A stretch of DNA of 64,000 bases from a bacterium (lineage in GTDB: Bacteria > Planctomycetota > Planctomycetia > Gemmatales > Gemmataceae). Positions 25,065-48,567 of the stretch are shown one piece after another; the first letter of the stretch is position 1; every line of letters begins with the position of its first letter. Where the stretch lies: positions 1-64,000 of the forward strand of contig JAFKFQ010000262.1 in assembly GCA_017308215.1 (NCBI GenBank), read 5' to 3'. A program made the position numbers and the translations under genes. The notes beneath the pieces are model-generated. The model had not been told where the DNA came from, searched no databases, and saw only the letters and a program-made list of their open reading frames with translations.

Positions 25065-25100
25065 GATCGTCTCCTCGGCTTGGTGTGTCGGTGCTGTCCG

Positions 25101-25118
25101 CATACCGGGTGTCCGTCG
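25101..25118 (-). promoter_or_regulatory. shared upstream motif, copy 3
   Basis: Minus-strand CGACGGACACCCGGTATG, 36 bases before the ATG at 25064. It differs from the others at two positions (GGTATG for GCTACC). Confidence 0.7.
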
Positions 25119-25119
25119 G

Positions 25120-25425: not shown

Positions 25426-25467
25426 GAAACACCCCCTGATGCTGGAGGAATGGGCGTAGCGGTGCGC

Positions 25468-25490
25468 GGCCCGCCCGGTCGGGGCGGGCC
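25468..25490 (-). terminator. hairpin terminator after the 25,505-25,927 gene
   Basis: Nine-base perfect stem (25,468-25,476 with 25,482-25,490), 5-base loop, 15 bases past the stop of the minus-strand gene. No T-tract. Confidence 0.55.
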
Positions 25491-25504
25491 TCAAGACGTG
25501 ACCG

Positions 25505-25927: not shown

Positions 25928-25983
25928 GGCGGCGGTCCTGATGGAGATGATTGGCCTCGGCACATTGCCACGGCCTACGCCGC

Positions 25984-26001
25984 CGTAGCAGGTGTCCGTT
26001 G
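25984..26001 (-). promoter_or_regulatory. shared upstream motif, copy 4
   Basis: Minus-strand CAACGGACACCTGCTACG, 56 bases before the ATG at 25927. It is also 138 bases before the divergent plus-strand gene at 26,139. Confidence 0.7.
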
Positions 26002-26138
26002 GACGAGTTGGTCGAACCCGTGCATGGCGTGTGGCTCTCGTGGCGGTAGGATGCACGGGCGCGGAGGTCTGCCTTCGTTGCGGACGCTCTTCTGGGCCGT
26101 GCTGATTGCACCGAGGTCAACGCGAGGATGGAGAAGTC

Positions 26139-27152
26139 ATGGCAAAGAAGCGAGTTGACGGCTCAACCGACCTCAAGGGCCGTTTCGAGCGGGCCTCCCG
26201 GTCACTCAACCCGCCTGCCTTGGCTGTTGGCGTTGACGTGACGTGGTGGGGAGGAAGCGGAAAGGCGAGCGAAGCACAGAGCCGAAAGGAGTGCATCGCT
26301 TTCGCACTCAGGACCGAAGACGGCTGGACGCTTCCCGAGTTCCGACGGGTCGATCTAACGGGCTTTAACGCCGCGGCTGGGAAGTCCGAGCCAAACGCTG
26401 ACCCGGACGGGGAAGACCTCATCGTCGAACTCAAGCACCTATTCGAGAAGCACGGCGCAGCAACCAAGATTGTCGTCGCGCTGGACGCCCCGCTCTTGGC
26501 AGTCGAGCGCGGACTGCCCCGCCGCAAGAAATCCCAAAAAGTCGGCGAGGTGGAGCGGAGGGCAGCAGACCGAGCATGGGCCACGAGTGTGTCACTCTCT
26601 CCGAAGGGCTGGAGGGCCATCAACATCCAGCCCGGCTCGCCTTTACCACCTCGGATCGCCTCAGTTGTCGAGAAGCTCGTCACGGCGGGGTTCAGTTTGT
26701 ACCTGAAACCCGACTCGCCGCTCAAGGATCGCCTCCTGATCGAGTGCTTCCCGAACGAGGTCATTTGGAGCGGTGGTGTAATGGGACGGTGCGGCTCGTA
26801 CACCTTCGCCTCAATGACCGCCTACAAACAGATGGGCAAGTGCGGGACCGTGCTACCCCTCGGCCTGCTCGAACAAGTGTGTACCCACACTCTCCGTCCG
26901 TGCCTAGAACTCGCTGGCCTGAACGCCGACGGGTGGCTGTCCCGATTCTGGGATTGGCTCTCGAAGGACGAAGTCGTCGTAACCGGTGTGGAGGGGGCGA
27001 CGGGGAAATGCTTCGACGACGCCATCGATTCGGTGCTCTCCCTCATCGCCGCCGTGTCGTTCATCGATGGGTCGGCGCACGTCCATCAAGGAGACGACCC
27101 GCAGGATGGGCACATCATCGGCCCCGGTCTCCCGTCGGGCCAACTGTCCTGA
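26139..27152 (+). CDS. DUF429 domain protein (predicted RNase H-like nuclease)
   Basis: 337 residues; ATG 26139 has GGATGGAGAAG upstream. The fold's first strand with its acidic residue is ALAVGVDVTWWGG; the second acidic site is KIVVALDAPLLAVERG; then LLIECFPNEVIWSG and the C-terminal GKCFDDAIDSVLSLIAAVSF supply the last acidic pair. This is the DUF429 pattern, a predicted RNase H-fold nuclease of unknown biological role. Alone on the plus strand among minus-strand genes, with a bidirectional hairpin after it. Confidence 0.82.
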   Translation: MAKKRVDGSTDLKGRFERASRSLNPPALAVGVDVTWWGGSGKASEAQSRKECIAFALRTEDGWTLPEFRRVDLTGFNAAAGKSEPNADPDGEDLIVELKHLFEKHGAATKIVVALDAPLLAVERGLPRRKKSQKVGEVERRAADRAWATSVSLSPKGWRAINIQPGSPLPPRIASVVEKLVTAGFSLYLKPDSPLKDRLLIECFPNEVIWSGGVMGRCGSYTFASMTAYKQMGKCGTVLPLGLLEQVCTHTLRPCLELAGLNADGWLSRFWDWLSKDEVVVTGVEGATGKCFDDAIDSVLSLIAAVSFIDGSAHVHQGDDPQDGHIIGPGLPSGQLS

Positions 27153-27156
27153 CGAC

Positions 27157-27178
27157 CGAGATCGCACGTGCGGTCTCG
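27157..27178. terminator. bidirectional hairpin between convergent genes
   Basis: CGAGA-T-CGCA/TGCG-G-TCTCG forms an 11-pair stem around a CpG centre, 4 bases after the DUF429 stop and 29 bases before the Xer stop on the other strand. A degraded copy of the shared motif (about 27,190-27,210) follows. Confidence 0.55.
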
Positions 27179-27206
27179 ATACCCGGTCTCGGGTAAGGAG
27201 TGTCGG

Positions 27207-28145
27207 TCAGTAGTTCAGTTTCTCCGCGGCGTCGGCCAGATCCTTGTCACTGCGGCGGGTGTACCGGGCCGTCGTGGTCAGCGACTCGTGGCCGAGGATC
27301 TGGGCCAGTCCGACGAGGTCGTTGCCGGTGTCCGCGAGGTACTGGTGGGCCATCGTGTGCCGTAGCAGGTGCGGGTGGAGCTCGACGCCGGTGATCGCGC
27401 CGTACTTGGCGCACAGGGCGCGAACGCCCCGCTCGGTCAGCGGCCCCCGCTCGCCGATGAACACCCGGTCGGTCTCGACCGGGGGCCGGGCGTCGAGGTA
27501 CGCCTGCACCGCCCGCCGGGCCGGGAGAGGCAGCGGGGCCGTCCGCTGCTTGCCGCCCTTGCCGTGCCGGAAGACCGCCGACCCGCTCCGCTCCCCGATC
27601 AGCAAATCGTCCAGATCGAGCTGCACGAGGTCGCCGACCCGGCAGCCGGTGTACAGCAGAAGGTGGAAGACCGCGTCCGCCCGCACGTCGCTCCGCAGCT
27701 CCACCTCCCGCAGCAGACGGCGGACCTGAGACCGGTCGAGCCCCTTCGGCGCGAGCGCCTGCCGCCGCAGCTCGCGGACCGGCTGGGCGACGTTGGCGGT
27801 GACGCGGCCCACGGCGGCCAGCCACCCGAAGAACCGCCGCACCGACACCATCGCCCGGTTCACCGTGGCGACCGCCTGCCCCTTGGTCCGGCGCAGGTGG
27901 TCGCGGAAGTCGGTGATGTCCCGGGTCGTCACCCGCCCGACGACGAACCGCTCGCCGTTCGTCGCCGCGAACCAGATCACGAGCTTTTTCAGGTCGCTCA
28001 CCACCGCCCGACGGGTCTCGGGGGCGAAGTCGTTGGCGGCGAGGTACTGGTCGAGGAGGCCGGGCTCCTCCTTCCCGAGCGGCAGGCCCCCGAACGCATT
28101 ACCGCCCGAGTTCTGGCGGCCTTCTGGACGGAAATCTGACGCCAT
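27207..28145 (-). CDS. tyrosine recombinase (XerC/XerD-like)
   Basis: 312 residues. N-terminal SAM-like core-binding domain (about 25-125), then the catalytic domain: Arg in [12 protein letters not shown], Lys in [13 protein letters not shown], His-x-x-Arg in [14 protein letters not shown], His in [13 protein letters not shown] with the Tyr nucleophile. All catalytic residues are intact. It probably catalyses excision/integration or dimer resolution of the element. It follows the HTH and RuvB-like genes on the same strand at short spacing, likely one transcription unit driven from motif copy 5. Confidence 0.93.
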
Positions 28146-28205
28146 ATGGACACTCCTCCCTCGTAACTCGGGTGGTATTGGCCGTTATCGCCCCTGCTTA
28201 CCGGC

Positions 28206-28670
28206 TCAGTTCGGGCGCTTCAGGTGCAGGAACACTCGCCGCAACACTTCGCCCGAGTCCACTCCTTCGACGCCGCTCGGGTACAGCGCCTTGATCGCCG
28301 CGCCGACTTGATCCGCCGTCGGTGACGCCAACCCGAGCGCCTTGAGCCCGTCGAGCAGGTCGGTGTGCGTGCCGCCCGCCTTCGGCTTGGGGGTTACCGG
28401 GCGGGCTGGCTTGGGGGCGACGGGGCGGTGCCCGCGGGCATAGAAGAGGACCGGCTGGCAGTTGACCCCGCAGTTGCGGCGCCGCACCTCAAGGCACCTC
28501 CGCTGGAGCTCCTCGGGGTAGCACGGACGCCGGGTCCGCACGTGGTAGACCGGCGGGGGGAACACCCCTTCCCCGACGAGCTGGTAGTACCTCGCCCGGC
28601 TCAGGCCCACCATCCGGGCCATGTCCGCCACGGAGACGACGGCCTTGGTCGGCACCGGCTGGTCGCGCAT
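28206..28670 (-). CDS. MerR/AlpA-like helix-turn-helix protein (excisionase-type)
   Basis: 154 residues from ATG 28670. The N-terminal KAVVSVADMARMVGLSRARY followed by YQLVGEGVFPPPVYHV is a winged-helix AlpA/excisionase pattern, where FPPP follows the recognition helix. A Cys pair and Pro-rich linker lead to a C-terminal acidic helical domain (ADQVGAAIKALYPSG). Lies between the RuvB-like gene (20 bases upstream) and the Xer gene (60 bases downstream), so it may direct recombination or regulate the module. Confidence 0.75.
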   Translation of the reverse strand: MRDQPVPTKAVVSVADMARMVGLSRARYYQLVGEGVFPPPVYHVRTRRPCYPEELQRRCLEVRRRNCGVNCQPVLFYARGHRPVAPKPARPVTPKPKAGGTHTDLLDGLKALGLASPTADQVGAAIKALYPSGVEGVDSGEVLRRVFLHLKRPN

Positions 28671-28690
28671 GGTCGTCCTCTCGGATGAAG

Positions 28691-29653
28691 TTACTCCGGG
28701 CCGTTCGCCCGGCGGGTCAGCAGTTCGCGGCCCTCGGCGGTCAACTGCCGCCGCCCTTGGTCGTCCTTCAGGATCAGCCCGGAGCGGATCAGGAACGGCT
28801 CGATCACCTGCGACACGGTGCGGGCCGGCAGGCCGATCAGGCTGGCGACGACGTTCAGCCGGCTGGCACCCTCGGCCAGCGCGGCGAGGTACTGCCGCTC
28901 GGTCGGGCCGAGGCCGATCTCGTCGAGCCCCTCCAGCGCGCACGCCCGGGTCAGGTGTCCGCGGGTGATGGTGGTCTCCCCCTCGGCGCGGCAGACGCGG
29001 CGGCACGCCTGCAACAGCCGCAGCGCCAGCCGCGGCGTGCCCCGCGCCCGCTCGGCGATCAGGGGCGGCAGCCCGTCGTGGACCGGCCAGCCGAGGGCGC
29101 GGCCCCGCTGGGCGACCAGCGCGGCCAACTCCCCGACCGTGTAGAACTGGAACCGCAGGACGAGTCGCATCCGGTCGCGGAGGGGTTGCAGCAGGCCGTA
29201 CTCGTCCGTCGTGCTCAGCAGGAGCGAGAAGTCGTTGAGCGGGATCGACTGCGGCCCGCCCTTGGCCCGGCTCGGGAGGACGACCTTCCGCTGGTCGAGC
29301 GCGAGGTACAGCGCCGTCTGGTACTCCTTGTCGAGTTCGTGGCACTCGTCGATGTGGATCAGGTCGCGGTCCTTCGCGCCCAGCAGCAGCGCGTTGAGGT
29401 CGGCGGGGCCGGTGACCGACTGGCCGAGAACCTCGTGGAGACCCGTCCCCATCTCGGCGGCGACGACTTTCGCCACCTGCGACTTGCCGAGCCCCGGGCC
29501 GCCGACCAGCAGGGCGTGGTCGAACTTGCGGCGGTCGGCGGCGGCGGCTTCGAGGGCAACGGTGACCTGATCGACGACGCCCCGCTGGCCGATCAGGTGC
29601 GAGAGGGCGGACGGGGCGGCGTCGTTCACCTCGGTCGGTCGCTGGTCGGTCAT
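28691..29653 (-). CDS. RuvB-like AAA+ ATPase
   Basis: 320 residues from ATG 29653. Alignable by eye to RuvB: LSHLIGQRGVVDQVTVALEA, Walker A GGPGLGKSQ, Walker B LIHIDECHEL, sensor 1 LLLSTTDEYG followed by PLRDRM (arginine finger), and sensor 2 RGTPRLALRLL, then a C-terminal winged helix (RQYLAALAEGASRLN, IEPFLIRSGLI). RuvB drives Holliday-junction branch migration; this is a mobile-element paralogue, possibly acting with the Xer recombinase two genes downstream. Differs from housekeeping RuvB in the DECH box. Motif copy 5 is 41 bases upstream. Confidence 0.85.
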   Translation of the reverse strand: MTDQRPTEVNDAAPSALSHLIGQRGVVDQVTVALEAAAADRRKFDHALLVGGPGLGKSQVAKVVAAEMGTGLHEVLGQSVTGPADLNALLLGAKDRDLIHIDECHELDKEYQTALYLALDQRKVVLPSRAKGGPQSIPLNDFSLLLSTTDEYGLLQPLRDRMRLVLRFQFYTVGELAALVAQRGRALGWPVHDGLPPLIAERARGTPRLALRLLQACRRVCRAEGETTITRGHLTRACALEGLDEIGLGPTERQYLAALAEGASRLNVVASLIGLPARTVSQVIEPFLIRSGLILKDDQGRRQLTAEGRELLTRRANGPE

Positions 29654-29694
29654 GGCGGACTCCGTCGGTTGTGGTGGGGGTGATCGCCCGAGGG

Positions 29695-29712
29695 CATAGC
29701 GGGTGTCCGTCA
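29695..29712 (-). promoter_or_regulatory. shared upstream motif, copy 5
   Basis: Minus-strand TGACGGACACCCGCTATG, 41 bases before the ATG at 29653 of the RuvB-like gene. Confidence 0.75.
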
Positions 29713-29910
29713 CTCGACCCGGAGAGAGGATCGCGCACCCGGCGCGGTTCGCAATGTCGGTAACGCCGGGCCGAGACCGAACGCGACGGACGACGGCCTG
29801 TTGAGCAAGGCCGCGGGGGGTTCATGGGGGGCAGATCCGATCACGACGGGCGAGTACCGGGAGTTCGGCGGGTACGGTGGGGTCGTGATGGTCTGAAGCG
29901 AAGGAGGTAC

Positions 29911-29942: not shown

Positions 29943-30857
29943 TCACGCCACGGCAACCTCCTCGGGCTGCGCCTGCTGTTGGCTGGAGAAGCCGAGGAAG
30001 AAGGTGGCGGCGCGACTGGCGTCCGCCGTCACCCGGAAGATGTACCTCGGGTCGGCCTTCATCGCGCCGAGCCAGTATGCGAGGTACGACGTGCTGTTCG
30101 ACCGGTCGCCATGCGGAAGACCGAGGTCGGTCGCCACGAAGCTCGCCGCCAGCTCGGCCCGAAGTTCGCCTTCGGCGTAGGAGCCGGTCCAGCCGAGCCG
30201 GTGCTCGGTCCAATGCCCGGCCAACTCGTGCAGGACCGTCTGGTAGTAGTCCTGCTCCTCCGCGAATTGGGCCTTGGGCGGCAGCTGGACGTAGTCACCG
30301 TCGGCGCCGGGCGCCGGCCTGCGGTAGTACGCCCGGTCGCCGCCGTGGCGGATGTCGGCCCCGGTGGCGGCGATGGCCCGCTCAGCTGGGAGGTAGTCGA
30401 TGAAGTCCACGCGGTCTCGGGCTTCGGCCCGGAGGCGGTCGGCGGCCTCGCCTTCGACCTGATCGACGGAGAACACCGTGAAGTTCCGCAGGACGAGGTA
30501 CTTGCCCTCGCGTTCATCGCCGTCCTCGGCGTCCTTCGGCTTCCGCGTGACCGGCTTGCAGAATACGACGTTGCAACCCCACCGCCCGCTGGGGACGTGC
30601 GGGGGGCGGGCCTTGACCCGGCACCCGATCTCGTGCCACTGGCGGAAGGTCGCGTAGCGGCTCGACGTGAGCCCGAGGCGTTGGCGGTACAGTTGCAGGA
30701 GCAGGACGTTGATGCCGGTGTAGCGGCGTCCGGTGGCGGCGTTCGCGGGCGGGCCGGACGTGCCCCACGGGCACTTCCACGGGGGCACGCGGCCCTTCTC
30801 CAGAGCGTTGACGATCTCGGCGGTGATTTGCTGCCGGGTCTCGTTCGGACTGGACAT
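29943..30857 (-). CDS. ArdC-like antirestriction protein (ssDNA-binding domain plus zincin)
   Basis: 304 residues from ATG 30857. The N-terminal DUF1738 domain starts NETRQQITAEIVNALEKGRV and PPWKCPWG, with the family's RRYTGINVLLL. The C-terminal metallopeptidase-like part has YYQTVLHELAGHWTEHRLG (HExxH) and the downstream AELAASFVATDLGL with the third-ligand Glu. ArdC proteins protect incoming mobile DNA from restriction during transfer, which fits an element lying next to restriction systems. Motif copy 6 is 41 bases upstream. Confidence 0.88.
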   Translation of the reverse strand: MSSPNETRQQITAEIVNALEKGRVPPWKCPWGTSGPPANAATGRRYTGINVLLLQLYRQRLGLTSSRYATFRQWHEIGCRVKARPPHVPSGRWGCNVVFCKPVTRKPKDAEDGDEREGKYLVLRNFTVFSVDQVEGEAADRLRAEARDRVDFIDYLPAERAIAATGADIRHGGDRAYYRRPAPGADGDYVQLPPKAQFAEEQDYYQTVLHELAGHWTEHRLGWTGSYAEGELRAELAASFVATDLGLPHGDRSNSTSYLAYWLGAMKADPRYIFRVTADASRAATFFLGFSSQQQAQPEEVAVA

Positions 30858-30898
30858 GACCGTGCTCCTCGTGGGGTGGGTGGGGATCACCACGAGCG

Positions 30899-30916
30899 GG
30901 TAGCAGGTGTCCGTCA
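30899..30916 (-). promoter_or_regulatory. shared upstream motif, copy 6
   Basis: Minus-strand TGACGGACACCTGCTACC, 41 bases before the ATG at 30857, the same distance as copy 5. Confidence 0.75.
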
Positions 30917-31339
30917 GTTCGAGATGGATTCGGCCACTGGCGTGCCGGGGGCGGTGCAGCGTGTGAGCCGATAGAACGCAACGAAATCGGCACGAAGTCC
31001 CGAGCCCGGCCATGCCCGACCAGTGCCTTCGAGACCCACCGACCAGATCCGGCAGGAGTGCGCCACCAAGCTCCGCTCCGCCGAAACCGGCGACATGTTC
31101 ACGACCATTCCCGGGTGCTCTCTGAGCGGGACCGGCGCACGCCGAGCATGGTGGGGATGCGGATCACGCCCGACGGTTGCCTGCTGGCTCGAAGGCAAGG
31201 CCACGTACAAGGCGTTTCTTGGGGCCGGGGCCGACCTGACCCGCAACCTCCACGGGGTCGTCGAGGTCGCCGGGCTGGACGGCGACGAGGCGGGTAACCT
31301 TCTGGGCCGGATCGCCGCGAACAAGGGGGCAACGGACCG
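30917..31339. other. spacer between the mobile-element module and the Pycsar operon
   Basis: About 420 bases with open frames but none with convincing protein character or a ribosome site. It is the boundary between the motif-bearing module and the defence genes. No repeat or tRNA was seen. Confidence 0.5.
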
Positions 31340-32626
31340 TCAGTCGGCCAGCACCGCGAGGATCGACGGGTGCAGTTTGGAGCGCGAGACGCGCTCCTTC
31401 ACCCACTCCCGTAGGGATGGTGACGCCGCCTTGAGCCGCTCCGCGATGGCGAGGCTCTCCCCCACCTCACGCTTCAGCTCCATGAGAGTCTCGGCGATGT
31501 CCATGACGTGAAAGCGGTTGTGCCCGACCCCGAGGTCGAGAACGCAGACGACCAGATCAGCCCGGATGTGGTAGTCCGTCAACGCCTCGTAGAGCGTGCG
31601 GCACTGGGCGGCGATCTTGTCCGTGTAGGAGAAGCCCCACCCCTGCGAGGTCACGTGACCCGCGAAGCTGGCAATCAGTTCCCGCATGTCCTCTTTGCTG
31701 GCCCCGAGCATCAGCCGCGCCGCCAGCGGCGGCAACTGCATGACCGCCTCGTGGACCAGATCGGCGTCCGTTCGGAACTGGGTCAGGATTTCGAGGATGC
31801 GCTCCGCGTGTTCGGGCGACACGCTCGCCCTCGCTGAGAACTGGGCGATCAGCTTGGTCAACTCCTCGTGGGGCGAGGTCGCCGCCACGGTGCCCGAGAC
31901 GTAGTGCCACGCCTGCTTGAGATCGGCGACGGTCTGGTAGCGCTTGTCCGGGTTGGTCCGGGTGCATTTGTCGATGACCATCGCCACTCCCGGATCGAGC
32001 GAGGAGGTGTCGGTGGCGGTGGAGGCAAGCTCGCCGACGTGCAGTTCGAGCAGCAACCGGCCCAAGCTGTAGATGTCCGACCGCTCGTCGGCATTCTTGG
32101 CGTTGGCCATCTGCTCGGGGGCCATGTACAGCGGCGTCCCCATCGGGTAGCCGGTGATCGTGTGGCGGGTGCTCGCGGAGTCCAGCACTCGCCCGAGTCC
32201 GAAGTCCGTGACCACGAGGTCGTCGTCGCTGTTCATCAGGACGTTCTCGGGCTTGAGATCCCGGTGGATGACGCCCTCGCCGTGCGTGTACTCGATGGCG
32301 TCGAGGATCGAGCCGTACACCTTGGCGATCCGGTCCCCGTCGCCTTGCATCGTGCGGAGCACGTCCCTCAGCGTGTGCTGATACCTCGGCATGACGTACC
32401 AGTAGGGGGCCTCCTGCAAGTGGAGGCCGACCACCTTGACCACGTTCGGGTGGTCGAGCCGGTGCAGTAGCCGGACCTCCTCGCGGAACCGGCGGGTGCT
32501 GTCCTCGCCCAAGCCGGGCAGGAGCTTCTTCTTGGCGAAGACCTTCCCGTCCTCCTTCCGCTTGCACAGCCAGACCTCGCCGAACCCGCCAGAGCCGAGC
32601 TTCCGAAAAGCGACGTAGCTAGGCAT
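31340..32626 (-). CDS. Ser/Thr protein kinase with C-terminal helical domain, next to Pycsar genes
   Basis: 428 residues from ATG 32626, ribosome site GAGGGAA; GTG 32635 is the alternative. Canonical kinase: glycine loop LGSGGFGEV (10-18), Lys32, HRDLKPEN (121-128), DFG (141-143) and GTPLYMAPEQ. Residues about 260-428 form a helical domain unlike PASTA or membrane-anchored bacterial kinases, with FSARASVSPEHAERILEILT and YEALTDYHIRADLVVCVLDL; it may bind a regulator. No membrane helix, so cytoplasmic. It lies 69 bases after the PycTM gene on the same strand and could be the fourth gene of that operon, or an independent defence kinase. Confidence 0.85.
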   Translation of the reverse strand: MPSYVAFRKLGSGGFGEVWLCKRKEDGKVFAKKKLLPGLGEDSTRRFREEVRLLHRLDHPNVVKVVGLHLQEAPYWYVMPRYQHTLRDVLRTMQGDGDRIAKVYGSILDAIEYTHGEGVIHRDLKPENVLMNSDDDLVVTDFGLGRVLDSASTRHTITGYPMGTPLYMAPEQMANAKNADERSDIYSLGRLLLELHVGELASTATDTSSLDPGVAMVIDKCTRTNPDKRYQTVADLKQAWHYVSGTVAATSPHEELTKLIAQFSARASVSPEHAERILEILTQFRTDADLVHEAVMQLPPLAARLMLGASKEDMRELIASFAGHVTSQGWGFSYTDKIAAQCRTLYEALTDYHIRADLVVCVLDLGVGHNRFHVMDIAETLMELKREVGESLAIAERLKAASPSLREWVKERVSRSKLHPSILAVLAD

Positions 32627-32695
32627 TTCCCTCACTCCGGTAAGCCGACGAGACCGCGCACCGACGATCCCACGACACCGCCGATCATCCCCGCC

Positions 32696-33298
32696 TCAGC
32701 CGGGCAGCAGGGAGATGCAAAACACGGCGACTACCCAGCAGACGAGGCCGACGACGGTGGCTTGGGCTGAGGCCCTCACGGTCCTGTGCTTGGTGAGGGC
32801 GATGTGCGAGGTCTCAACGATCTGCGTCCCCACATCCCTGAGCCAGTCGTCCTCGGACATCCCCTTCAGTTCGGTGACGTACCTCTCGAAGTCGTGGCCG
32901 TACTGGGTGGCAACGTGGCCGAAGAAGATTCGGCACTTCGGGGCCTTCTCCCCGAACCGGGACATGACGGCGTAGATCAGCATCCCCACGGCGACGACCG
33001 AGCAGAGGGCGAAGGCGATCAGGGCCACCAGACCGACCCACGCGGGGGCCGGGGCGGGGCTGGCGGCAAGCGCCTTCTTGAGTGCCCCCACGCTGCTGAC
33101 TACGAACCCGAACATCAGGGTGTTGATGGCGAACACGAACGCCGCCTTGGTGTCGGCGAAGCGGATCTGCTCCTGCACCCCGGCCAGCACCTTGAGGCAG
33201 TTGTCGAGGCTCGACTTCCTTTCGGCGGGGTCGCCCGCGGGCTGGCCGTTCGTCGGCTGGGCCGGGGTCGTCGGGTTGCTCGCTGGTTTCTTGGCCAC
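32696..33298 (-). CDS. pycTM: Pycsar effector PycTM-like membrane protein (DUF5706 type)
   Basis: 200 residues from GTG 33298, 9 bases after GGGGAGG; GTG 33307 overlapping the previous stop is less well placed. A disordered Pro/Thr head is followed by LKVLAGVQEQIRFADTKAAF, the hallmark of the PycTM/DUF5706 family (helix, then A-D-T-K-A at the entry of helix 1). Membrane helices are at about 52-72, 86-112 and 180-198, with a cytoplasmic segment (120-178) rich in charged residues. In known Pycsar systems the effector senses cCMP or cUMP and damages the membrane, aborting infection. The family call rests on motif, topology and the cyclase two genes upstream. Confidence 0.82.
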   Translation of the reverse strand: MAKKPASNPTTPAQPTNGQPAGDPAERKSSLDNCLKVLAGVQEQIRFADTKAAFVFAINTLMFGFVVSSVGALKKALAASPAPAPAWVGLVALIAFALCSVVAVGMLIYAVMSRFGEKAPKCRIFFGHVATQYGHDFERYVTELKGMSEDDWLRDVGTQIVETSHIALTKHRTVRASAQATVVGLVCWVVAVFCISLLPG

Positions 33299-33303
33299 GC
33301 CCG

Positions 33304-33885
33304 TCACCTCCCCAGCCGCCGCTGGCAGCAGACCTTGAACTTCTTGCCGCTCCCGCACGGGCACGGCTCGTTGCGCCCGACTCCCCCCTTTTCTCGCACC
33401 GCCTCGGCGATGCCCGCCGTGCCGTGCGCTCTGGCCTCCCCGGGCCAGACGGCCTTGACCCCGGTGAATTCTTCCTTCACGAGCGCCTGCTGGTACAGGT
33501 GCTCCTTGAACAAGAAGGTGTGCGCCACGGCGAACAGGTCGTTCAACGAGTCGCCCCGCCCGAAGTCTATTCCGCTCTCGCCCGGCACGTACAGGCACAG
33601 GCTCCAGTCCGAGTTGATGTGCGAGTCGCCGCCCTTCTGCCAGCGATCCCGGTGGCTGACCAGTATGACGGTGGGGGTCGTCCCCCGGTCGGGGAAGCTC
33701 GGAGGGTACTCGACCCGCAGCGTCACTGACTCGTAGCGGTGGCCGTGCCGGGACTGGACGTGGAAGACGCCCTCCAAGTAAGCCACGCCGCCCCCGGCGA
33801 CCCCGCTGCGGAAGTCGTCGAGGGTCTGGCGCCCGATCCGCTGCTCGGCCTCCCACCGGGCCGGGTTTCGCTCGTGCCACCCCAT
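33304..33885 (-). CDS. E2 ubiquitin-conjugating-like protein fused to a SEC-C zinc motif
   Basis: 193 residues. The core matches a minimal UBC fold: strands ESVTLRVEYPPSFPD, then TPTVILVSH, then HINSDWSLCLYVPGES, where His89/Asn91 and Cys97 mimic the HPN...C active site of E2 enzymes; a long helix follows (DLFAVAHTFLFKEHLYQQAL). The end (170-187) is GRNEPCPCGSGKKFKVCC, a complete SEC-C zinc motif as on SecA. No E1 or JAB gene is nearby. The gene starts 1 base after the cyclase stop and its stop overlaps the start region of the PycTM gene, so it is an integral operon member. In CBASS, E2-like proteins modify the nucleotide synthase; by analogy it may act on the cyclase. Confidence 0.78.
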   Translation of the reverse strand: MGWHERNPARWEAEQRIGRQTLDDFRSGVAGGGVAYLEGVFHVQSRHGHRYESVTLRVEYPPSFPDRGTTPTVILVSHRDRWQKGGDSHINSDWSLCLYVPGESGIDFGRGDSLNDLFAVAHTFLFKEHLYQQALVKEEFTGVKAVWPGEARAHGTAGIAEAVREKGGVGRNEPCPCGSGKKFKVCCQRRLGR

Positions 33886-33886
33886 G

Positions 33887-35446
33887 TCAGTGCGACCGCC
33901 ACGGGCGGCTGTTGTGCCACGCGCCGGTCGTCGGCGAGGCGGCAGTGGTCACGAAGACTTGGCCTTCCTTGACGGAAGCGCCGAGGCTCCCGGCCCGTGC
34001 CGCCTTCGTCTCCTTGATCCGGTCGAGTTTGGGGAACGTCAGCCCCGTGGCGACATAGGTATCGCCGTCCTGAGCGAACTCGGCCCGCACGTCCTCGTCG
34101 TCCAGTTGGTCGTAGATGTCCTCGGAGATGCATATCTGCTTCGCCCCGGTTCGTTGCTGGAGCCGCTCGGCGGACGACACCTCCGGGCCGAAGCAGATGC
34201 CGACCCGCCGCCCCTTCTTGCCCAGTCGGGTCACGAACGCCTTGCCCACGTCCAGCCCGACCGCCACGTGGATGTCCTTGCGGTCCTTGAGGTGCTCGTT
34301 GAGGACGTGCTCCATCGAGGACTGCAACGCGATGGCGATGTCCACCGCCCTGCGGCACCGCTTGGCGTGCTTGTCGTCGCCGCACGGCATGTGCAGGATC
34401 GCCAAGATGCAGTCGCCCCGGTGCTGGAGGACCAGCCCCTCGTGGTCCGAGCCGATGACCGAGTGGAACTCGGACCGGATCATGTGGAACTGGCGGATCA
34501 GCGCGACGACCTTCTCGTCGCCCTCGGCCTCCTGCACGTAGCGGGTGAACCCGTCGAGGTCGGCGTAGACCGCCACCGCCGCCGTCCGCTTGCAGTTCCG
34601 CTCCGTCAGCACGTCGAGGTCGATCAGGGCGGCGGCGTCGGAGACTTCGATCTGGGCGAGCGGCAAGTCGTCCCGGTACTCCTCCGTCTTCTTCCGCCAC
34701 TTGTCCGCGTCCCACGACACCCCGAGGTCGTCGGCCAGATCGGGGTAGCGGTCCCACCGCAGGCCCGTGGCCCGGTAGCTCTGGACCCCGCTCACCACGG
34801 CGGACTTCTTGAAGTGCTCCTTCAGGCCGTCGGGCAGGTGGTCGTACACGTCTCGCGTGACGGTGATCGTGTCCGTGGCCCCGAGGATCTTGGCGGCGAG
34901 GTTGGCGCACGACCCCAACGAGATGAGTTCACGCTCGCCGGTCATGCCGATGTTGGCGATGTAGCTGGTGCCGCCACTCAGCCCCGCCGCGCTGCCGAAG
35001 CGGACCTCCTCGAACACCGGGTCGAACACGCCGATGACGTAGCTGTTGTGCGTGACGGCGTGGACCACGGCCCTCCTCGCCCGCTCGGCGGCGTTCGACC
35101 CGTCGTCGGGGTCGTAGGGCTTGTAGGCGAGGGCGTGAAGGCGGACGGTCTGCCGCTGGATGTCGCCGATGTCGTCGGCGTCCATCAAGTCCCGCTGGAC
35201 CTTGCGGAGCACGCTCGCCGCCCGAACGAGCTTCTTCTGCTTCTGCTTGTCGTTCCCGGCGTCGGCGACCGCCCCGTGGAATCCGGGCACGTCCACGTAC
35301 AGGTGGACGCCTTCGGCCCGCCGCACGTCCTTCGTGCCCAGATTGCGGAAGTCCATCGTGCGGCGTAGGTCTTGGACATCAACCTCGAAGTCGTGGAAGT
35401 CGCGGTCCCTGACCCGCTGTCTCGACCGCCCCTCGTTCCATCCCAT
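33887..35446 (-). CDS. pycC: Pycsar-type nucleotide cyclase with tandem cyclase domains
   Basis: 519 residues from ATG 35446 with GGGAGGG six bases ahead. The second domain (about 285-450) is a class III cyclase: metal Asp in VYADLDGFTRYV (D296/D298), second metal Asp345 in QHRGDCILAIL, and FGPEVSSAERLQ at the position of the transition-state Asn/Arg block. The first domain (about 45-205) has LYVDVPGF and SLGSCANLAAKIL at matching places but lacks the second metal Asp, so it looks like a degenerate partner half. The adjacent PycTM-like effector points to a cCMP- or cUMP-making Pycsar cyclase rather than a housekeeping adenylate cyclase; the product is inferred. Confidence 0.8.
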   Translation of the reverse strand: MGWNEGRSRQRVRDRDFHDFEVDVQDLRRTMDFRNLGTKDVRRAEGVHLYVDVPGFHGAVADAGNDKQKQKKLVRAASVLRKVQRDLMDADDIGDIQRQTVRLHALAYKPYDPDDGSNAAERARRAVVHAVTHNSYVIGVFDPVFEEVRFGSAAGLSGGTSYIANIGMTGERELISLGSCANLAAKILGATDTITVTRDVYDHLPDGLKEHFKKSAVVSGVQSYRATGLRWDRYPDLADDLGVSWDADKWRKKTEEYRDDLPLAQIEVSDAAALIDLDVLTERNCKRTAAVAVYADLDGFTRYVQEAEGDEKVVALIRQFHMIRSEFHSVIGSDHEGLVLQHRGDCILAILHMPCGDDKHAKRCRRAVDIAIALQSSMEHVLNEHLKDRKDIHVAVGLDVGKAFVTRLGKKGRRVGICFGPEVSSAERLQQRTGAKQICISEDIYDQLDDEDVRAEFAQDGDTYVATGLTFPKLDRIKETKAARAGSLGASVKEGQVFVTTAASPTTGAWHNSRPWRSH

Positions 35447-35493: not shown

Positions 35494-35533
35494 TGTACGC
35501 TATAATGGTACAGTTCGCTAAACAGGGTGTCAA
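35494..35533 (-). promoter_or_regulatory. promoter and operator of the Pycsar operon
   Basis: Minus-strand TTGACA (35,528-35,533), 17-base spacer, TACCAT (35,505-35,510). The -10 box lies inside an inverted repeat TGTAC-N9-GTACA (35,494-35,512). Transcription would start about 50 bases before the cyclase ATG. A repressor on the repeat would block the promoter; the XRE gene on the other side is the obvious candidate. Confidence 0.7.
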
Positions 35534-35545
35534 CCGGCTTGTCGG

Positions 35546-35574
35546 TTGCATCATGCCCTTTCTGCTTGTACAAT
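35546..35574 (+). promoter_or_regulatory. promoter and operator of the XRE/ImmA pair
   Basis: TTGCAT (35,546-35,551), 17-base spacer, TACAAT (35,569-35,574). The -10 box overlaps the palindrome TTGTACAA (35,566-35,573), which shares its GTAC centre with the operator of the divergent operon, suggesting autoregulation by the XRE protein. Confidence 0.65.
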
Positions 35575-35626: not shown

Positions 35627-36031
35627 ATGTCCACCGTGGGAGATCGGATCAAGAAGCGGAGGGCCGAGCTTGGGTGGACTCAAGACCAACTGGCGCAGAA
35701 GGCCGGGATCAGCAAGTCGTTCCTGTCCGATCTGGAGAACGGGAAGCGGAGCGTCAGCGCCGACAACCTGCTCGACATCGCCCGCGTGCTGAGCCTCAGC
35801 CTCGACTACCTGATGAAAGGGGGAGAGACCGGAGCGAAGCCTGCCGAGGTGCAGATCCCGGCGTCCCTCGCCGCCTTCGCCGAGGATGAGGGGCTGACGT
35901 TCAAGCAGGCCCTCGCACTGCTCAGGATGCGGGAGCAGATCGTCGCCCACCGCTCGACCTCGAAGAAGGAAGGGGTGGACAAGGTGGACTGGCAGAGGTT
36001 CTACGAGGCGGTGAAGGAGTTCCTCGAATGA
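35627..36031 (+). CDS. XRE-family repressor (CapH/ImmR-like)
   Basis: 134 residues from ATG 35627. DNA-binding domain at the N-terminus (GDRIKKRRAELGWTQDQLAQ, then AGISKSFLSDLENGKRSVSA), followed by a linker and a C-terminal LTFKQALALLRMREQI-type helical part. Its last codon overlaps the start of the ImmA/IrrE gene (ATGA). This pair layout is that of ImmR/ImmA and of the CapH/CapP regulators of CBASS and other defence systems, in which the protease cleaves the repressor after DNA damage. It probably represses itself and the divergent Pycsar operon. Confidence 0.85.
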   Translation: MSTVGDRIKKRRAELGWTQDQLAQKAGISKSFLSDLENGKRSVSADNLLDIARVLSLSLDYLMKGGETGAKPAEVQIPASLAAFAEDEGLTFKQALALLRMREQIVAHRSTSKKEGVDKVDWQRFYEAVKEFLE

Positions 36032-37068
36032 GCCGACTCGACGACGAGCCCGACGTGATCGAGCAGGCCCGGAGACTGCGGCTGGCCGGACACGGCAACC
36101 CCGTGCAGGCCATCGTCGGCCACTGCCTCGACCGCATCCGGCGTTGGGTCCAGTCGGACGGCCCGGTGGCCACCATCGGGCAGCTTGAGGCGCTCGTCAC
36201 CCGCCGCCTGCGTATGGTCTTCGAGGAGGTCGAGTCCGACGAGGGCCTCGCCGCCCTGATCCGCAAGTACATCCTGCTCGGGGAGGGGGTGTTCGCCTAC
36301 CTCAAGCACGACCTCGACGGCGACACGTTCGGGGCTACCTACCGCCGCAGCACGGCGGCACCCGACGCCCCGGATCGGCTGGTGGCGATCATCGACTGCC
36401 GGGGTGACAAGGGGGCACGCCGGTTTTTCACCCGCTGGCACGAGGTCGCACACTTCCTCGTCGAGCCGGACCCGGAGGAGGTCGAGACCCCGGTTCACCG
36501 GGCCTCGGACTCGCCGTTGGAGCGGCTGATGGACGAGATCGCCGCCCACGCCGGGTTCTACGAGCCGATCTTCGGCCCGGCGTTCGACCGGGAGATGGCG
36601 AGCCGTCCCCGACTGACATTTCAGGTCGTCGAGGCGGTTCGCGGCCAGTGTTTTCCCGACGCCAGCTTCCAAGCCACCCTGTTCGCCTGCCACCGCAGGC
36701 TGATGACGCCGGTGGTCTACGTCGAGGCGGAAGAACGGCTCAAGGCCGAGCACGAACGGCAGATCAAGGGCGGTGTGCAGTGGCTCTTCGAGGAGGCCCG
36801 CCCGGAGGCCCAGCTTCGGGCAGCGCAGGTAGTGCCGAACGCCGCCGCCCAGAGGGCGAAGCTGTTCATAGCCCCCAACATGCGCATCCCGTCCTCGTCG
36901 GTGATCCACCGACTCTTCTTCGACAGCCTCGGGTCGGAAGACACCGGGCGGGAGAACCTGAACACGTGGGAGCACTCTGGCGGGAAGCGGCTGGCGGATC
37001 AGGAGGTCTGGGTCGAGGCGAAGAAGGTCAAGGGCCGGGTGGTCGCCATCGTCCAGCCGGTGACGTGA
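36028..37068 (+). CDS. ImmA/IrrE-family metallopeptidase (CapP-like)
   Basis: 346 residues. The zinc site is RWHEVAHFLVEPD (HExxH at about 138), with further acidic ligands downstream in MDEIAAHAGFYEP (the ExxxH/A helix of IrrE-like proteases). The domain after about residue 230 is specific to longer members and may sense the inducing signal. Start overlaps the XRE stop by 4 bases. Expected role: cleave the XRE repressor on damage or infection and induce the Pycsar operon. Confidence 0.85.
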   Translation: MSRLDDEPDVIEQARRLRLAGHGNPVQAIVGHCLDRIRRWVQSDGPVATIGQLEALVTRRLRMVFEEVESDEGLAALIRKYILLGEGVFAYLKHDLDGDTFGATYRRSTAAPDAPDRLVAIIDCRGDKGARRFFTRWHEVAHFLVEPDPEEVETPVHRASDSPLERLMDEIAAHAGFYEPIFGPAFDREMASRPRLTFQVVEAVRGQCFPDASFQATLFACHRRLMTPVVYVEAEERLKAEHERQIKGGVQWLFEEARPEAQLRAAQVVPNAAAQRAKLFIAPNMRIPSSSVIHRLFFDSLGSEDTGRENLNTWEHSGGKRLADQEVWVEAKKVKGRVVAIVQPVT

Positions 37069-37118: not shown

Positions 37119-38318
37119 ATGACCGACGCATTGTTCGAGCAACTGCTGTACGAGGAGGAGAGTACCACGCTCGACTTCAAGAGGGAGCAGTATCGCTTCG
37201 TGAAGGCCAGCAACGAGGACAAGTCCGAGCTCCTCAAGGACATCCTCGGCTTTGCGAATGCGTGGCGGCGCTCCGAGGCGTACATCCTCATCGGGGTCGA
37301 GGACGTGCGGGGCGGGCGGGCCAACGTCGTCGGCATCCCGGCTACGGACCACCTCGACGACCACTCGTTGCAGCAGTTCGTGAACAACCTGACCAACCGC
37401 CCCGTCCGCTTCCACTACGAGGCGTTCGGTTTCGAGTCTAAGCAGATTGGAGTGGTCCGCATCGAGGAGCGGCAGGCCCGCCCGCTCTACCTCAAGTCGA
37501 ACTACGGCAAGCTCAAGAAGACCGAGGTGTACGTCAGGAGGGGTAGTTCCACCGACCCGACGAAGCCAGCCGGGCCGGACGAGATCGCCCTGATGGGTCA
37601 GGGCTCCGGGCCGCAGGACGCCGAGTTGGTGGTCGAGTTCGCCGACGTGGCGCGGGACGACTCACTGGGTACGCATGTCTCGTGGGAGGCCGAGTTCTGC
37701 GAGATGCCGCCGATGGAGACGATCCCTGACCTCACCCGCACGATGCAGCGGCGCCCGCTGGGCATCGACCCTTCGGCGATCCAGTTCGACCCGATGAACC
37801 GGCCCAACGAGGACTACTTCCGAGAACTGGCGAACTACGAGTTTGTTCGGCGCCTATTCCGGCCCGTGCGGTTAGTCGTGAAGAACGTCGGCCAAGTCGC
37901 CGCCAGTAGTGTGCGGGCCGAACTGATTGTCCCCACGAATGCCGGGGCAATGGTGCTGGACTCGTTGGACTTGCCCGACCCGCCGGAGCGCCGGGCCGAG
38001 TTCGTCTCCCCCGCCCTCAAGAAGATCCGCCCGGCGTTCCGGCGATCCCCCGGCGACGTGACCATCGACAAGAACGACGACAGGTTCCGGGTGGAGATTG
38101 ACTGTGGGGGGCTCCAGCCGGGTAGACGGGTGTGGTCCGATGTCTTCTTCATTGGCAAGGGAGCCAGTGGAGATCTGTGTCTGAGCGGGCAGGTGTTCGC
38201 CGAGAACCTACCCCAGCCGAAAGACTTCACTCTGCTGATCTCGGTCAATGTCAACCAAACCCGGATGTCGGTGAAGGAGTTGAAGGCGCTGCCGGGACAG
38301 GCCGGGACGGACGACTAG
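37119..38318 (+). CDS. AlbA_2 / Schlafen-type putative DNA-binding protein
   Basis: 399 residues. The N-terminal roughly 150 residues match the AlbA_2 domain: EESTTLDFKREQYRF, LLKDILGFANAWRRSEAYIL, IGVEDVRGG and a closing KKTEVYVRRGSSTDPTKP. The remaining 250 residues form a beta-rich domain of unknown type. AlbA_2/Slfn proteins are frequent in defence islands and several act as RNases or regulators; here the function is not deducible. It begins 50 bases after the ImmA-like gene, same strand. Confidence 0.8.
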   Translation: MTDALFEQLLYEEESTTLDFKREQYRFVKASNEDKSELLKDILGFANAWRRSEAYILIGVEDVRGGRANVVGIPATDHLDDHSLQQFVNNLTNRPVRFHYEAFGFESKQIGVVRIEERQARPLYLKSNYGKLKKTEVYVRRGSSTDPTKPAGPDEIALMGQGSGPQDAELVVEFADVARDDSLGTHVSWEAEFCEMPPMETIPDLTRTMQRRPLGIDPSAIQFDPMNRPNEDYFRELANYEFVRRLFRPVRLVVKNVGQVAASSVRAELIVPTNAGAMVLDSLDLPDPPERRAEFVSPALKKIRPAFRRSPGDVTIDKNDDRFRVEIDCGGLQPGRRVWSDVFFIGKGASGDLCLSGQVFAENLPQPKDFTLLISVNVNQTRMSVKELKALPGQAGTDD

Positions 38319-46094: not shown

Positions 46095-46447
46095 CCAAGC
46101 GCCGCAAGGGCAGGCCCCCGGCGAACGGCCCGGTGCCGCTCAGCCGCGAGGCGTTCAGGGACGAGGTGGCGGGTTGGGTGTCCACGATGAAAGTGGAGCC
46201 CAAAGAGGTCCACGTCCGCCCGATGAGCCGCAAGTGGGGAAGTTGCTCGACGACGGGCCGCGTCACGTTCGACGCGGGCCTGCTGGAGCAGCCCGCCGAG
46301 TTCCGCAGGCAGGTGATCGTCCACGAGTTACTGCACCTGAAGGTGCCGAACCACGGCAAGCTGTTCCGTGCCTTACTGAAGGCGTACTTGGGCACCGCCA
46401 GCGTGACGATCCAAAAGACCCACGGCGCTCAAGCACATGTGCATTGA
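46091..46447 (+). CDS. YgjP-like (DUF45) metallopeptidase
   Basis: 118 residues, start overlapping the hsdR stop (ATGA). VRPMSRKWGSCSTTGRVTFD followed by VIVHELLHLKVPNHGKLFRA gives the W-G-S-C and HELxHL-x7-H features of DUF45 zinc peptidases. These are regularly found beside type I hsdR genes; the substrate is unknown. Confidence 0.88.
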   Translation: MTKRRKGRPPANGPVPLSREAFRDEVAGWVSTMKVEPKEVHVRPMSRKWGSCSTTGRVTFDAGLLEQPAEFRRQVIVHELLHLKVPNHGKLFRALLKAYLGTASVTIQKTHGAQAHVH

Positions 46448-46464
46448 GGGGGGAAGAGCGTCCT

Positions 46465-48567
46465 ATGCAGCCAGTCGCATTCCGCGTCCAGATGTACCGC
46501 TCGGTGATCGACTCCGGGTGGATCGAGATCAACCCGATGACGGTGCTCGTCGGCAAGAACGAGTCGGGCAAGACCACGCTCCTCAAGGCCCTCCACAAGT
46601 TCAACCCGCACTCCCCCGAGCCGTACTCGATGGACAGCGAGTGGCCCCGGGGCCGCCGCAAGGACCGCAACAGCTCGCAGGTCGTGTGCTCGGTGCGGTT
46701 CCGCTTCACCGAGGAGGAGATCGAAGAACTGGCTCAGATTACCGACGTTCCGCTCGGCTCGCCCGAGATCGAAATCACCAAGGACTACAAGGGTCGGTTC
46801 GAGGTCCGCTTCACCGCCGACCTCTTCCCCAACCGGCTGCACCCGAACGCCATCGACAAGATCTGCGAGTCGCTCCCCAAACTGCCCGACCAGGTGGGCA
46901 ACACCTTCCGTGAGAAGGCGGAAGCGTCGGCTGCTGAGGCACGCCGCTTGGCCCACGAAGGCCGGTTCGGGGACTTCGTGAAGCTCAAGCCCGAGCAGGC
47001 CGCCGCGTTGCAGGAGGCGATGAGCCCAGCCGAACTGGCCCCGCACCACCAGCACGAGCAGAGCCACCTGAACGACTACCTCGCCAAGATCGACCAGATC
47101 AACGCCCGCCTGTCGGTCGAGCCGTCGATCCAGAAGCGGGCGCACGAGTTCGTCGTCAAGCGCATCCCGACCTTCATCTACATGACGGACTACAAGGCGT
47201 TCACCGGGTCCGCCCAGCTCGATCAGGTCAAGGGCCGCAAGGACCGCAACCAGCTTACCGACGAGGACCGGACCCTCCTGATGATCCTTAGCCTGTCCGG
47301 GCTCGACCTCGACGAAGAAGTCAGGAAGGGTGGGGAGGCCGACCGGGAGCAGCGGCAGTACGACCTCGACGACGCCTCCGCGACGTTGACGAGGGAGATT
47401 TCCGAGCGCTGGCGGCAGAAGAAGTACGAGGTCCAGTTCCGGGCGGACGGCCACCACTTCTACACGTTCGTCAAGGACGAGCGCGACCCGGCCCTGATCC
47501 GGCTGGAAGAGCGGTCCAAGGGCTTCCAGTGGTTCTTCTCCTTCGACCTGATGTTCATGCACGAGAGCGCCGGGACGTTCGAGGGGTGCGTCATCCTGCT
47601 CGACGAGCCGGGCCTGCACCTGCACCCGGACGCCCAGCGCGACCTGCTGAAGCGGCTGCGGGCCTACGCCGAGGACAACACGCTCCTCTACACCACGCAC
47701 CTCCCGTTCATGATCGACCTCCAGCGGCCCGGCGACGTGCGGGTGCTCAGCGAGACGCCCAACGGCCCGGTCGTCACCGAAGACCTGACCCTCGGCCAGC
47801 CCGAGGCGAAGTTCGTCCTGCAAGCCGCGCTCGGGATGAGCGGCGCGGCGAGCTACCTCGTCGCCCAGCGGAACCTCGTCGTCGAAGGCGTCGATGACTT
47901 CTGGTTCCTCACCGAGTTGTCGCGGCTGTTGAGGGCCTCGGGCCTTCCGCACCTGCCCGACGACGTTCACATCACCCCCGCCGGGGGCGCGTCGGAGGCG
48001 GTGTACATCGCCACGATCATGATCGGCCAGAAGCTAGAGGTCGTCGTACTGCTCGACACCGACAGCGCGGGGGAAACGGCGTGGGCCAAGCTGGTGAAAG
48101 GTTGGCTGACGAAGTACCAGACGACGCCGAGCCACGCCTTCCGCCTCGGGGAGTGTACGGGGGCGTCCGGCGAGTTCTCGATCGAGGACGTGTTCGAGCG
48201 GGACTACTACCTCGGCAAAGTGGCCGAAGCATGCAAGAAGCAGTTGGCGTCGGCGGGGGTGGACCAGCCCACGCTCGACGGCCACGGGCAACTCGTCAAG
48301 CAGGTGGAGCGGGCGTGCGAGGCGCTTGGGTTCCACTTCAACAAGGGGTCGGTGGCGAAGCTGATCCGCACCGAGTACGCCAACCTGAAGACCGCCGGCG
48401 AGTTGCCCGGCGTCACCCGAGACGCGGCGGTCGCCATCTTCACGAAGATCTGCGAGGCGCTCAAGGAGGACGGAGGCCCAATACCAGTAGAGCCCGCCAA
48501 GCTCGGGAGGCCAAAGAGGCCGCGGGCGTCATCGGGACGTGCAACCGGCAGCGACGGTTCGGACTAG
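46465..48567 (+). CDS. OLD-family ATPase/TOPRIM nuclease
   Basis: 700 residues from ATG 46465. ABC-type ATPase: Walker A VGKNESGKTTLL near the N-terminus, signature-like EERSKGFQWFFSF, Walker B CVILLDEPGLHLHPDAQRDL. The C-terminal TOPRIM part has NLVVEGVDDFWFL (Glu) and VVVLLDTDSAGE (DxD). This is the architecture of overcoming-lysogenisation-defect nucleases such as GajA and phage P2 Old. The Gabija partner (UvrD-like GajB) is absent: the next gene is McrB. It lies 17 bases after the DUF45 gene. Confidence 0.85.
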   Translation: MQPVAFRVQMYRSVIDSGWIEINPMTVLVGKNESGKTTLLKALHKFNPHSPEPYSMDSEWPRGRRKDRNSSQVVCSVRFRFTEEEIEELAQITDVPLGSPEIEITKDYKGRFEVRFTADLFPNRLHPNAIDKICESLPKLPDQVGNTFREKAEASAAEARRLAHEGRFGDFVKLKPEQAAALQEAMSPAELAPHHQHEQSHLNDYLAKIDQINARLSVEPSIQKRAHEFVVKRIPTFIYMTDYKAFTGSAQLDQVKGRKDRNQLTDEDRTLLMILSLSGLDLDEEVRKGGEADREQRQYDLDDASATLTREISERWRQKKYEVQFRADGHHFYTFVKDERDPALIRLEERSKGFQWFFSFDLMFMHESAGTFEGCVILLDEPGLHLHPDAQRDLLKRLRAYAEDNTLLYTTHLPFMIDLQRPGDVRVLSETPNGPVVTEDLTLGQPEAKFVLQAALGMSGAASYLVAQRNLVVEGVDDFWFLTELSRLLRASGLPHLPDDVHITPAGGASEAVYIATIMIGQKLEVVVLLDTDSAGETAWAKLVKGWLTKYQTTPSHAFRLGECTGASGEFSIEDVFERDYYLGKVAEACKKQLASAGVDQPTLDGHGQLVKQVERACEALGFHFNKGSVAKLIRTEYANLKTAGELPGVTRDAAVAIFTKICEALKEDGGPIPVEPAKLGRPKRPRASSGRATGSDGSD

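What the first reader, a model, noticed from the sequence alone, without database searches (positions are those of the whole stretch)
35627..37068. CapH/CapP-like repressor-protease pair next to a Pycsar rather than a CBASS operon
Seen: XRE gene and HExxH ImmA/IrrE gene overlap by ATGA and are divergent from the Pycsar operon. Known: CapH/CapP control CBASS and some other defence systems by damage-triggered repressor cleavage. Inferred: this Pycsar operon is inducible by DNA damage or infection.
Basis: partly seen in the sequence, partly recalled or inferred. Interest (0 to 1): 0.7.

Follow-up and report, generated by a model that had tools for sequence, protein, structure and literature searches.

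The report
Damage-sensing switch beside Pycsar defence
A bacterium carries a two-gene switch, a repressor and the enzyme predicted to cut it, that sits back-to-back with a phage-defence operon over a conserved DNA control site; it is probably a divergent relative of a known DNA-damage switch and is re-used by bacteria to control several different suicide-type defences.

Summary
An XRE gene (35627-36031) and a HEVAH protease gene (36028-37068) overlap by ATGA and diverge from a Pycsar operon (cyclase, E2-like, PycTM; 35446-32696). The repressor aligns over its full length with DdrO. The protease has almost no sequence signal, but its AlphaFold model (pLDDT 89) matches CapP best (Z 17.2), then PprI. 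Both PprI ssDNA contacts that could be placed, Arg85 and Phe88, are invariant here (R131, F134; 15/15 proteins).

New evidence: in the related loci the XRE gene nearly always lies directly upstream of the protease. Seven loci, the window included, have this cyclase divergent. Others have CBASS, short Argonaute/HNH or an E1-type operon. A box, TGTTCGCWAWRCARGAAGTCAA, lies upstream of the repressor (20.7 bits against 9.9 +/- 0.2 shuffled), occurs once in the 9.0-Mb genome and sits on the predicted Pycsar promoter. Between close relatives with different partners, similarity stops at this box, so the operator travels with the regulator.

Verdict: a divergent CapH/CapP-type controller of Pycsar. 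Damage induction is likely but untested. Published work already mentions this class of regulator next to Pycsar, so novelty is moderate. The E2-like protein inside the Pycsar operon may be the fresher lead.

The parts
35627..36031 (+). XRE repressor (CapH/DdrO-like): N-terminal HTH plus C-terminal domain with the conserved motif IVAHRS (residues 105-110, 35939-35956), the suggested cleavage region
   Evidence: Pfam HTH_3 1.8e-18; PADLOC capH 2.5e-14; full-length alignment to DdrO 6jq1/6rnx; A107 and R109 invariant in 14 proteins
36028..37068 (+). CapP/PprI-fold metalloprotease: HEVAH residues 138-142, probable third ligand D169, C-terminal GAF/PAS-like domain
   Evidence: AlphaFold model pLDDT 89.3; Foldseek PprI 3.1e-8, CapP 2.2e-7; VIA-align CapP Z 17.2, PprI Z 15.2; 9 of 15 family members hit capP, best 2.3e-5
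36418..36429 (+). Codons for R131 to F134, the positions matching PprI Arg85 and Phe88 (ssDNA contacts)
   Evidence: Invariant in 15 of 15 proteins; register fixed by the HExxH motif, PprI residues from PMC10904395
35512..35533 (+). Conserved operator-like box AGTTCGCTAAACAGGGTGTCAA
   Evidence: Motif 20.66 bits against 9.94 +/- 0.23 in shuffles; only match in the window and in the 9.0-Mb genome at up to 3 mismatches
35505..35533 (-). Predicted sigma-70 promoter of the Pycsar operon, TTGACA-17-TACCAT, covered by the box
   Evidence: 10 of 12 consensus matches; 0.1 expected per shuffle
35531..35548 (.). Inverted repeat CAACCG-6-CGGTTG next to the box; present in the window only, significance uncertain
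33887..35446 (-). Pycsar cyclase (PycC), long form; conserved C-terminal tail PWH-S-(K/R)PWRS(E/H)
   Evidence: PADLOC PycC 6.8e-98 over residues 1-493; Pfam Guanylate_cyc 7.6e-13; 65-68% identical relatives
33304..33885 (-). E2-like (ubiquitin-conjugating fold) protein with invariant Cys97 and a C-terminal SEC-C motif
   Evidence: PADLOC E2 3.8e-15; SEC-C 2.2e-10; Cys97 invariant in 6 of 6; fold matches mostly E2/UEV domains but weak, best E 0.1
32696..33301 (-). PycTM transmembrane effector of Pycsar
   Evidence: Pfam PycTM 6.7e-12; PADLOC PycTM 6.3e-26
37119..38318 (+). AlbA_2/Schlafen-like gene, probably in the same operon as the regulator pair
   Evidence: Pfam SLFN_AlbA_2 7.1e-17; directly follows the protease in L009 and L012 as well

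Best explanation
This is a self-contained damage-responsive switch. Shown from sequence and models: a DdrO/CapH-type repressor, a CapP/PprI-fold metalloprotease, overlapping (probably coupled) genes, and a conserved box lying on the predicted divergent Pycsar promoter. Inferred: the repressor dimer binds the box and blocks RNA polymerase, so little cyclase, E2-like protein and PycTM is made. When phage attack or replication damage exposes ssDNA, the protease binds it (R131, F134), cuts the repressor near IVAHRS in the C-terminal dimerisation domain, and the repressor leaves the DNA. The Pycsar operon is then expressed before or during infection. The same repressor probably autoregulates its own operon, including the AlbA-like gene.
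For: Repressor matches DdrO end to end, including the cleavable C-terminal domain. Protease fold is CapP then PprI, well above all other families. HExxH and the two PprI ssDNA contacts that could be placed are invariant in 15 proteins. The XRE gene precedes the protease in all relatives whose upstream DNA was held, except the weakest, L020. The box is conserved upstream of the repressor whether the partner is Pycsar, short Argonaute or (in L015) CBASS, is unique in the genome and covers the predicted promoter. In L010 (Pycsar) against L011 (Argonaute) similarity is 0.91 in the box and 0.72 on the repressor side, but 0.51-0.52 (background) on the partner side. Partners are immune operons where identifiable.
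Against: No expression, binding or cleavage data. The protease is only 11-17% identical to CapP/PprI, so activation by ssDNA is inferred from two residues and a fold; PprI Arg207 and Arg267 could not be placed. The box is not an obvious palindrome, unlike usual XRE operators, and part of its conservation is the -35 element. The third metal ligand appears to be Asp rather than Glu.
Confidence: 0.77

Rival explanations
1. The pair mainly controls its own downstream genes (AlbA-like, PLD nuclease, type I restriction-modification), and the Pycsar operon is only a neighbour.
For: The downstream genes are co-directional and close (50 bp to AlbA-like); in L009 and L012 the AlbA-like gene directly follows the protease.
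Against: The conserved box sits on the promoter of the divergent operon. The downstream systems vary (BREX BrxC, DISARM DrmD, SIR2, type I RM), while the divergent cyclase recurs in seven loci, in two separated clades of the protease tree. Co-control of both sides is not excluded.
Confidence: 0.12
2. The pair answers a trigger other than ssDNA, for example a nucleotide or a phage product bound by the GAF/PAS-like C-terminal domain, with the same repressor-cleavage output.
For: The C-terminal domain models as a GAF/PAS-like sensor. GAF domains can bind cyclic nucleotides, and PMC10904395 raises other ligands for PprI.
Against: The equivalents of PprI Arg85 and Phe88 are invariant, and both characterised relatives, PprI and CapP, are ssDNA-activated (PMC10904395).
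Confidence: 0.2
3. A toxin-antitoxin pair of the XRE-COG2856 kind or a prophage/ICE repressor-antirepressor pair (ImmR/ImmA type) that only happens to lie here.
For: XRE plus HExxH protein pairs have been predicted as toxin-antitoxin systems (own knowledge); a tyrosine recombinase lies at 27207-28145.
Against: Where the neighbours of the pair could be named in relatives they are immune operons; no protease relative in 2.9 million viral contigs or 72,556 plasmids.
Confidence: 0.06

Closest known systems
CapH/CapP controller of CBASS (Lau et al. 2022, cited in PMC13373217; Thauera CapP structure 7t5t)
   Same: HTH repressor gene just upstream of an M78-fold HExxH protease gene, next to an immune operon; the protease model superposes on CapP over most of its length (Z 17.2, 243 residues); repressor best PADLOC family capH.
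   Different: About 11% identity in the protease and a larger protein (346 residues); capP profile only borderline (0.0032; best relative 2.3e-5); partner is Pycsar with an E2-like gene.
PprI (IrrE)/DdrO of Deinococcus
   Same: Same protease fold, DdrO-like full-length repressor, invariant equivalents of Arg85 and Phe88.
   Different: PprI/DdrO controls a genome-wide regulon; here the box occurs once in the genome and the repressor gene overlaps the protease gene.
CapW/BrxR and CapK/CapS regulators of immune operons (PMC9122601, PMC13373217)
   Same: Local, damage-responsive repressors reused across unrelated defence systems; BrxR relatives already seen near Pycsar.
   Different: WYL ligand binding or kinase signalling instead of repressor proteolysis.
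E2-only type II CBASS (Cap2-short; own knowledge)
   Same: A nucleotide cyclase encoded beside a stand-alone E2-like protein with its Cys kept.
   Different: The cyclase is a Pycsar adenylate/guanylate-cyclase fold, not a CD-NTase; the E2 carries a SEC-C tail.

Membership tests
CapH/CapP regulator pair | HTH repressor gene adjacent to and upstream of a metalloprotease gene, at an immune operon | tested here: met
   ATGA overlap; repeated in the relatives; Pycsar, CBASS, short Argonaute partners
CapH/CapP regulator pair | Protease with CapP fold and HExxH | tested here: met
   Foldseek 2.2e-7 to 7t5t; VIA Z 17.2, rmsd 4.1, 243 aligned; H138, E139, H142 invariant
CapH/CapP regulator pair | Sequence match to the CapP profile | tested here: inconclusive
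   Window protein 0.0032; 9 of 15 family members match, best 2.3e-5
CapH/CapP regulator pair | Repressor with HTH and cleavable C-terminal dimerisation domain | tested here: met
   capH 2.5e-14 over residues 3-91; DdrO alignment over profile positions 4-134. Cleavage itself not testable
CapH/CapP regulator pair | Protease activated by ssDNA, cleaving the repressor and derepressing the operon | not testable with these tools
   Only residues R131 and F134 checked against PprI
PprI/DdrO regulon | Operator repeated at many repair genes across the genome | tested here: not met
   One match to the box in 9.0 Mb at up to 3 mismatches; assembly is about 85% complete
Peptidase_M78 (PF06114) | Profile match above the curated cut-off | tested here: not met
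   No hit for the window protein; 3 of 15 family members at best 0.0032. The fold nevertheless matches
Pycsar | PycC cyclase with a PycTM or PycTIR effector | tested here: met
   PycC 6.8e-98, PycTM 6.7e-12 in the window; cNMP-binding plus TIR effector in L004
Pycsar | Cyclase makes cCMP or cUMP on infection | not testable with these tools
   No assay
E2-only CBASS-type conjugation | E2 fold with catalytic Cys acting on the cyclase | tested here: inconclusive
   Cys97 invariant, PADLOC E2 3.8e-15; fold search weak, best E about 0.1; cyclase tail conserved

The most novel reading that the evidence does not exclude
A portable, sequence-divergent CapH/CapP family whose operator moves with it controls any abortive-infection operon placed across the box (Pycsar, CBASS, short Argonaute, E1-type) and at the same time its own co-directional defence genes. 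In the Pycsar version the cyclase is additionally held or primed by a stand-alone E2-like protein through its conserved C-terminal tail, a control layer not described for Pycsar in the papers I could search.
Probability: 0.25. Interest if true: 0.72.

Novelty: new variant of a known kind. Interest (0 to 1): 0.5.

Why it matters
It would extend repressor-cleavage control from CBASS to Pycsar and short Argonaute in Planctomycetota and other little-studied phyla, through a protease family that Pfam and NCBIfam miss. The conserved box and the partner swap at the box give a directly testable rule for predicting which operon such a controller governs, and can flag new defence operons. It also points to a Pycsar operon with an E2-like protein.

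Tried and rejected
Protease relatives in viral contigs and plasmids: none. The cyclase in viral contigs: none; only 25-29% relatives on plasmids. PDB sequence search with the protease: IrrE only at E 0.11-0.15, so the fold rather than the sequence carries the case. The inverted repeat CAACCG/CGGTTG looked like the operator at first, but relatives lack it. The box has no obvious palindrome. E2 fold search was weak. No second copy of the tmRNA 3' end in the window, so a tmRNA-integrated element is unproven. The primary CapH/CapP and E2-only CBASS papers are not in the library.

Full report
What is there. XRE runs 35627-36031 and the protease 36028-37068, sharing ATGA. On the other side of a 180-base gap lies a three-gene Pycsar operon on the minus strand: a long PycC cyclase, an E2-like protein with a SEC-C tail, and PycTM. 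Downstream of the protease, in the same direction, follow an AlbA_2/Schlafen-like gene, a PLD nuclease and a type I restriction-modification system.

The repressor. Its best PADLOC family is capH (2.5e-14). Against solved structures it aligns with DdrO from end to end (6jq1 E 2.8e-8 over residues 5-132), and a profile of 14 family members does so at 1.5e-11, so the C-terminal, cleavable half is present too. In that half A107 and R109 of the motif IVAHRS are invariant. In DdrO of D. geothermalis the cleavage-site loop holds Leu117-Arg118, and Arg118 is required for ssDNA-stimulated cutting (PMC10904395). That IVAHRS is the equivalent is my inference. It is the only full-length relative of this repressor in the genome; ten other matches cover little more than the HTH.

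The protease. Sequence alone is nearly silent: no Pfam hit, capP at 0.0032. With relatives the signal grows: 9 of 15 match capP, best 2.3e-5, and 3 match Peptidase_M78 weakly. The AlphaFold model (pLDDT 89.3) settles the fold: Foldseek gives only PprI/IrrE and CapP below 0.001, and VIA-align ranks CapP first (Z 17.2) and PprI second (15.2). PprI binds ssDNA through Arg85, seven residues before its first metal histidine, and stacks Phe88, four before it (PMC10904395). The same spacing gives R131 and F134 here, both invariant in all 15 proteins. PprI Arg207 and Arg267 could not be placed. By the IrrE register the third metal ligand would be D169, also invariant.

Relatives and partners. One scan of bacterial and archaeal genomes gave 15 related loci, L006 being the same locus as L005; L002/L004 is a further one. 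The XRE gene precedes the protease wherever upstream sequence was held, apart from the weakest match, L020. The cyclase is divergent in the window, L004, L007, L008, L009, L010 (cut) and L012; the E2 gene follows in all but the cut one. L004 has a PycTIR effector, and a gene in the same place starts similarly in L007, L008, L009 and L012. Other divergent partners are CBASS in L015 (cyclase plus SAVED effector) and L016 (cyclase plus patatin), type III CBASS in L017 (cyclase, two HORMA, TRIP13), short Argonaute with an HNH-APAZ-like partner in L006 and L011, an E1-domain operon in L019, and a cut PycC-like protein in L013. Downstream neighbours vary: BrxC, DrmD, SIR2, a second Pycsar plus type I RM, AlbA-like. 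The module is therefore a general controller, and Pycsar is its commonest partner in this sample.

The operator. Ungapped motif search of 260 bases upstream of the repressor found TGTTCGCWAWRCARGAAGTCAA at 20.66 bits against 9.94 +/- 0.23 in shuffles. The box is strong in the Planctomycetota and Verrucomicrobiota loci and only partial or absent in the Acidobacteriota and Myxococcota ones. In the window it is 35512-35533, the only match in 64 kb (0.01 expected) and in the 9.0-Mb genome. It coincides with the only predicted promoter of the gap, pointing at Pycsar (TTGACA-17-TACCAT); part of its conservation may therefore be the -35 element. The clade L006, L007, L010, L011 has swapped partners: L010 (Pycsar) and L011 (Argonaute) are 0.91 identical in the box and 0.72 on the repressor side, but 0.51-0.52, the shuffled level, on the partner side. 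The operator belongs to the regulator.

Mechanism and confidence. Repression of the divergent promoter by box binding, then protease cleavage of the repressor: about 0.77. ssDNA or DNA damage as the trigger: about 0.65. Co-control of the downstream genes: plausible, untested.

Known or new. PMC13373217 lists Pycsar, BREX, CBASS and DISARM among operons next to CapW/BrxR and CapH+CapP, and PMC9122601 reports BrxR near Pycsar. So the association as such is not new. New here, as far as the accessible library shows, are the divergent family, the portable box, the short-Argonaute partner and the E2-containing Pycsar. In the last, Cys97 is invariant in a HIxxDWxxC context, the full-length E2 was found only beside this cyclase in the genomes searched, and the cyclase ends in a conserved tail. 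Its role is unknown.

Noticed in passing
33304-33885 (-) and 33887-35446 (-); L004, L007, L008, L009, L012: A stand-alone E2-like protein with invariant Cys97 and a SEC-C tail is encoded between a Pycsar cyclase and its effector; the cyclase has a conserved C-terminal tail (PWH-S-KPWRSE). This resembles E2-only CBASS and may be an undescribed Pycsar variant.
   Followed up: partly
L006:6680-9491 (-), L011:6659-9398 (-): The same regulator pair and box lie divergent from a short Argonaute (pAgo E about 1e-144) with an HNH-APAZ-like partner gene.
   Followed up: partly
L017:4515-7355 (-): A complete type III CBASS (cyclase, two HORMA proteins, TRIP13) divergent from a distant member of the pair.
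   Followed up: partly
L008:10959-12381 (+): A second Pycsar-like pair (PycTM and a cyclase) directly downstream of the protease, so that the controller is flanked by Pycsar genes on both sides.
   Followed up: no
L012:5585-6588 (+): The protease gene of Rhodopirellula sallentina is frameshifted in the record (assembly error or decay).
   Followed up: no
37119-38318 (+); L009:11002-12216: An AlbA_2/Schlafen-like gene follows the protease in three loci and may be a third member of the module (PADLOC candidate PDC-S50).
   Followed up: partly
13381-29713: A tmRNA gene followed by an ORF with an HTH at its C-terminus (13979-15763), a tyrosine recombinase (27207-28145) and a RuvB-like gene (28691-29713) suggest an integrated element carrying the defence island; no second copy of the tmRNA 3' end was found in the window.
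   Followed up: partly
31340-32635 (-) and 29943-31013 (-): A Ser/Thr kinase gene just beyond PycTM (matches phage-defence kinase profiles) and an ArdC-like antirestriction gene next to it.
   Followed up: no
46174-52266 (+): Further likely defence genes: an OLD-like AAA ATPase, then genes that look like McrB and McrC.
   Followed up: no
60025-61661 (-): A ParB-like gene beside an N6_N4 DNA methylase, a further sign of a mobile element.
   Followed up: no
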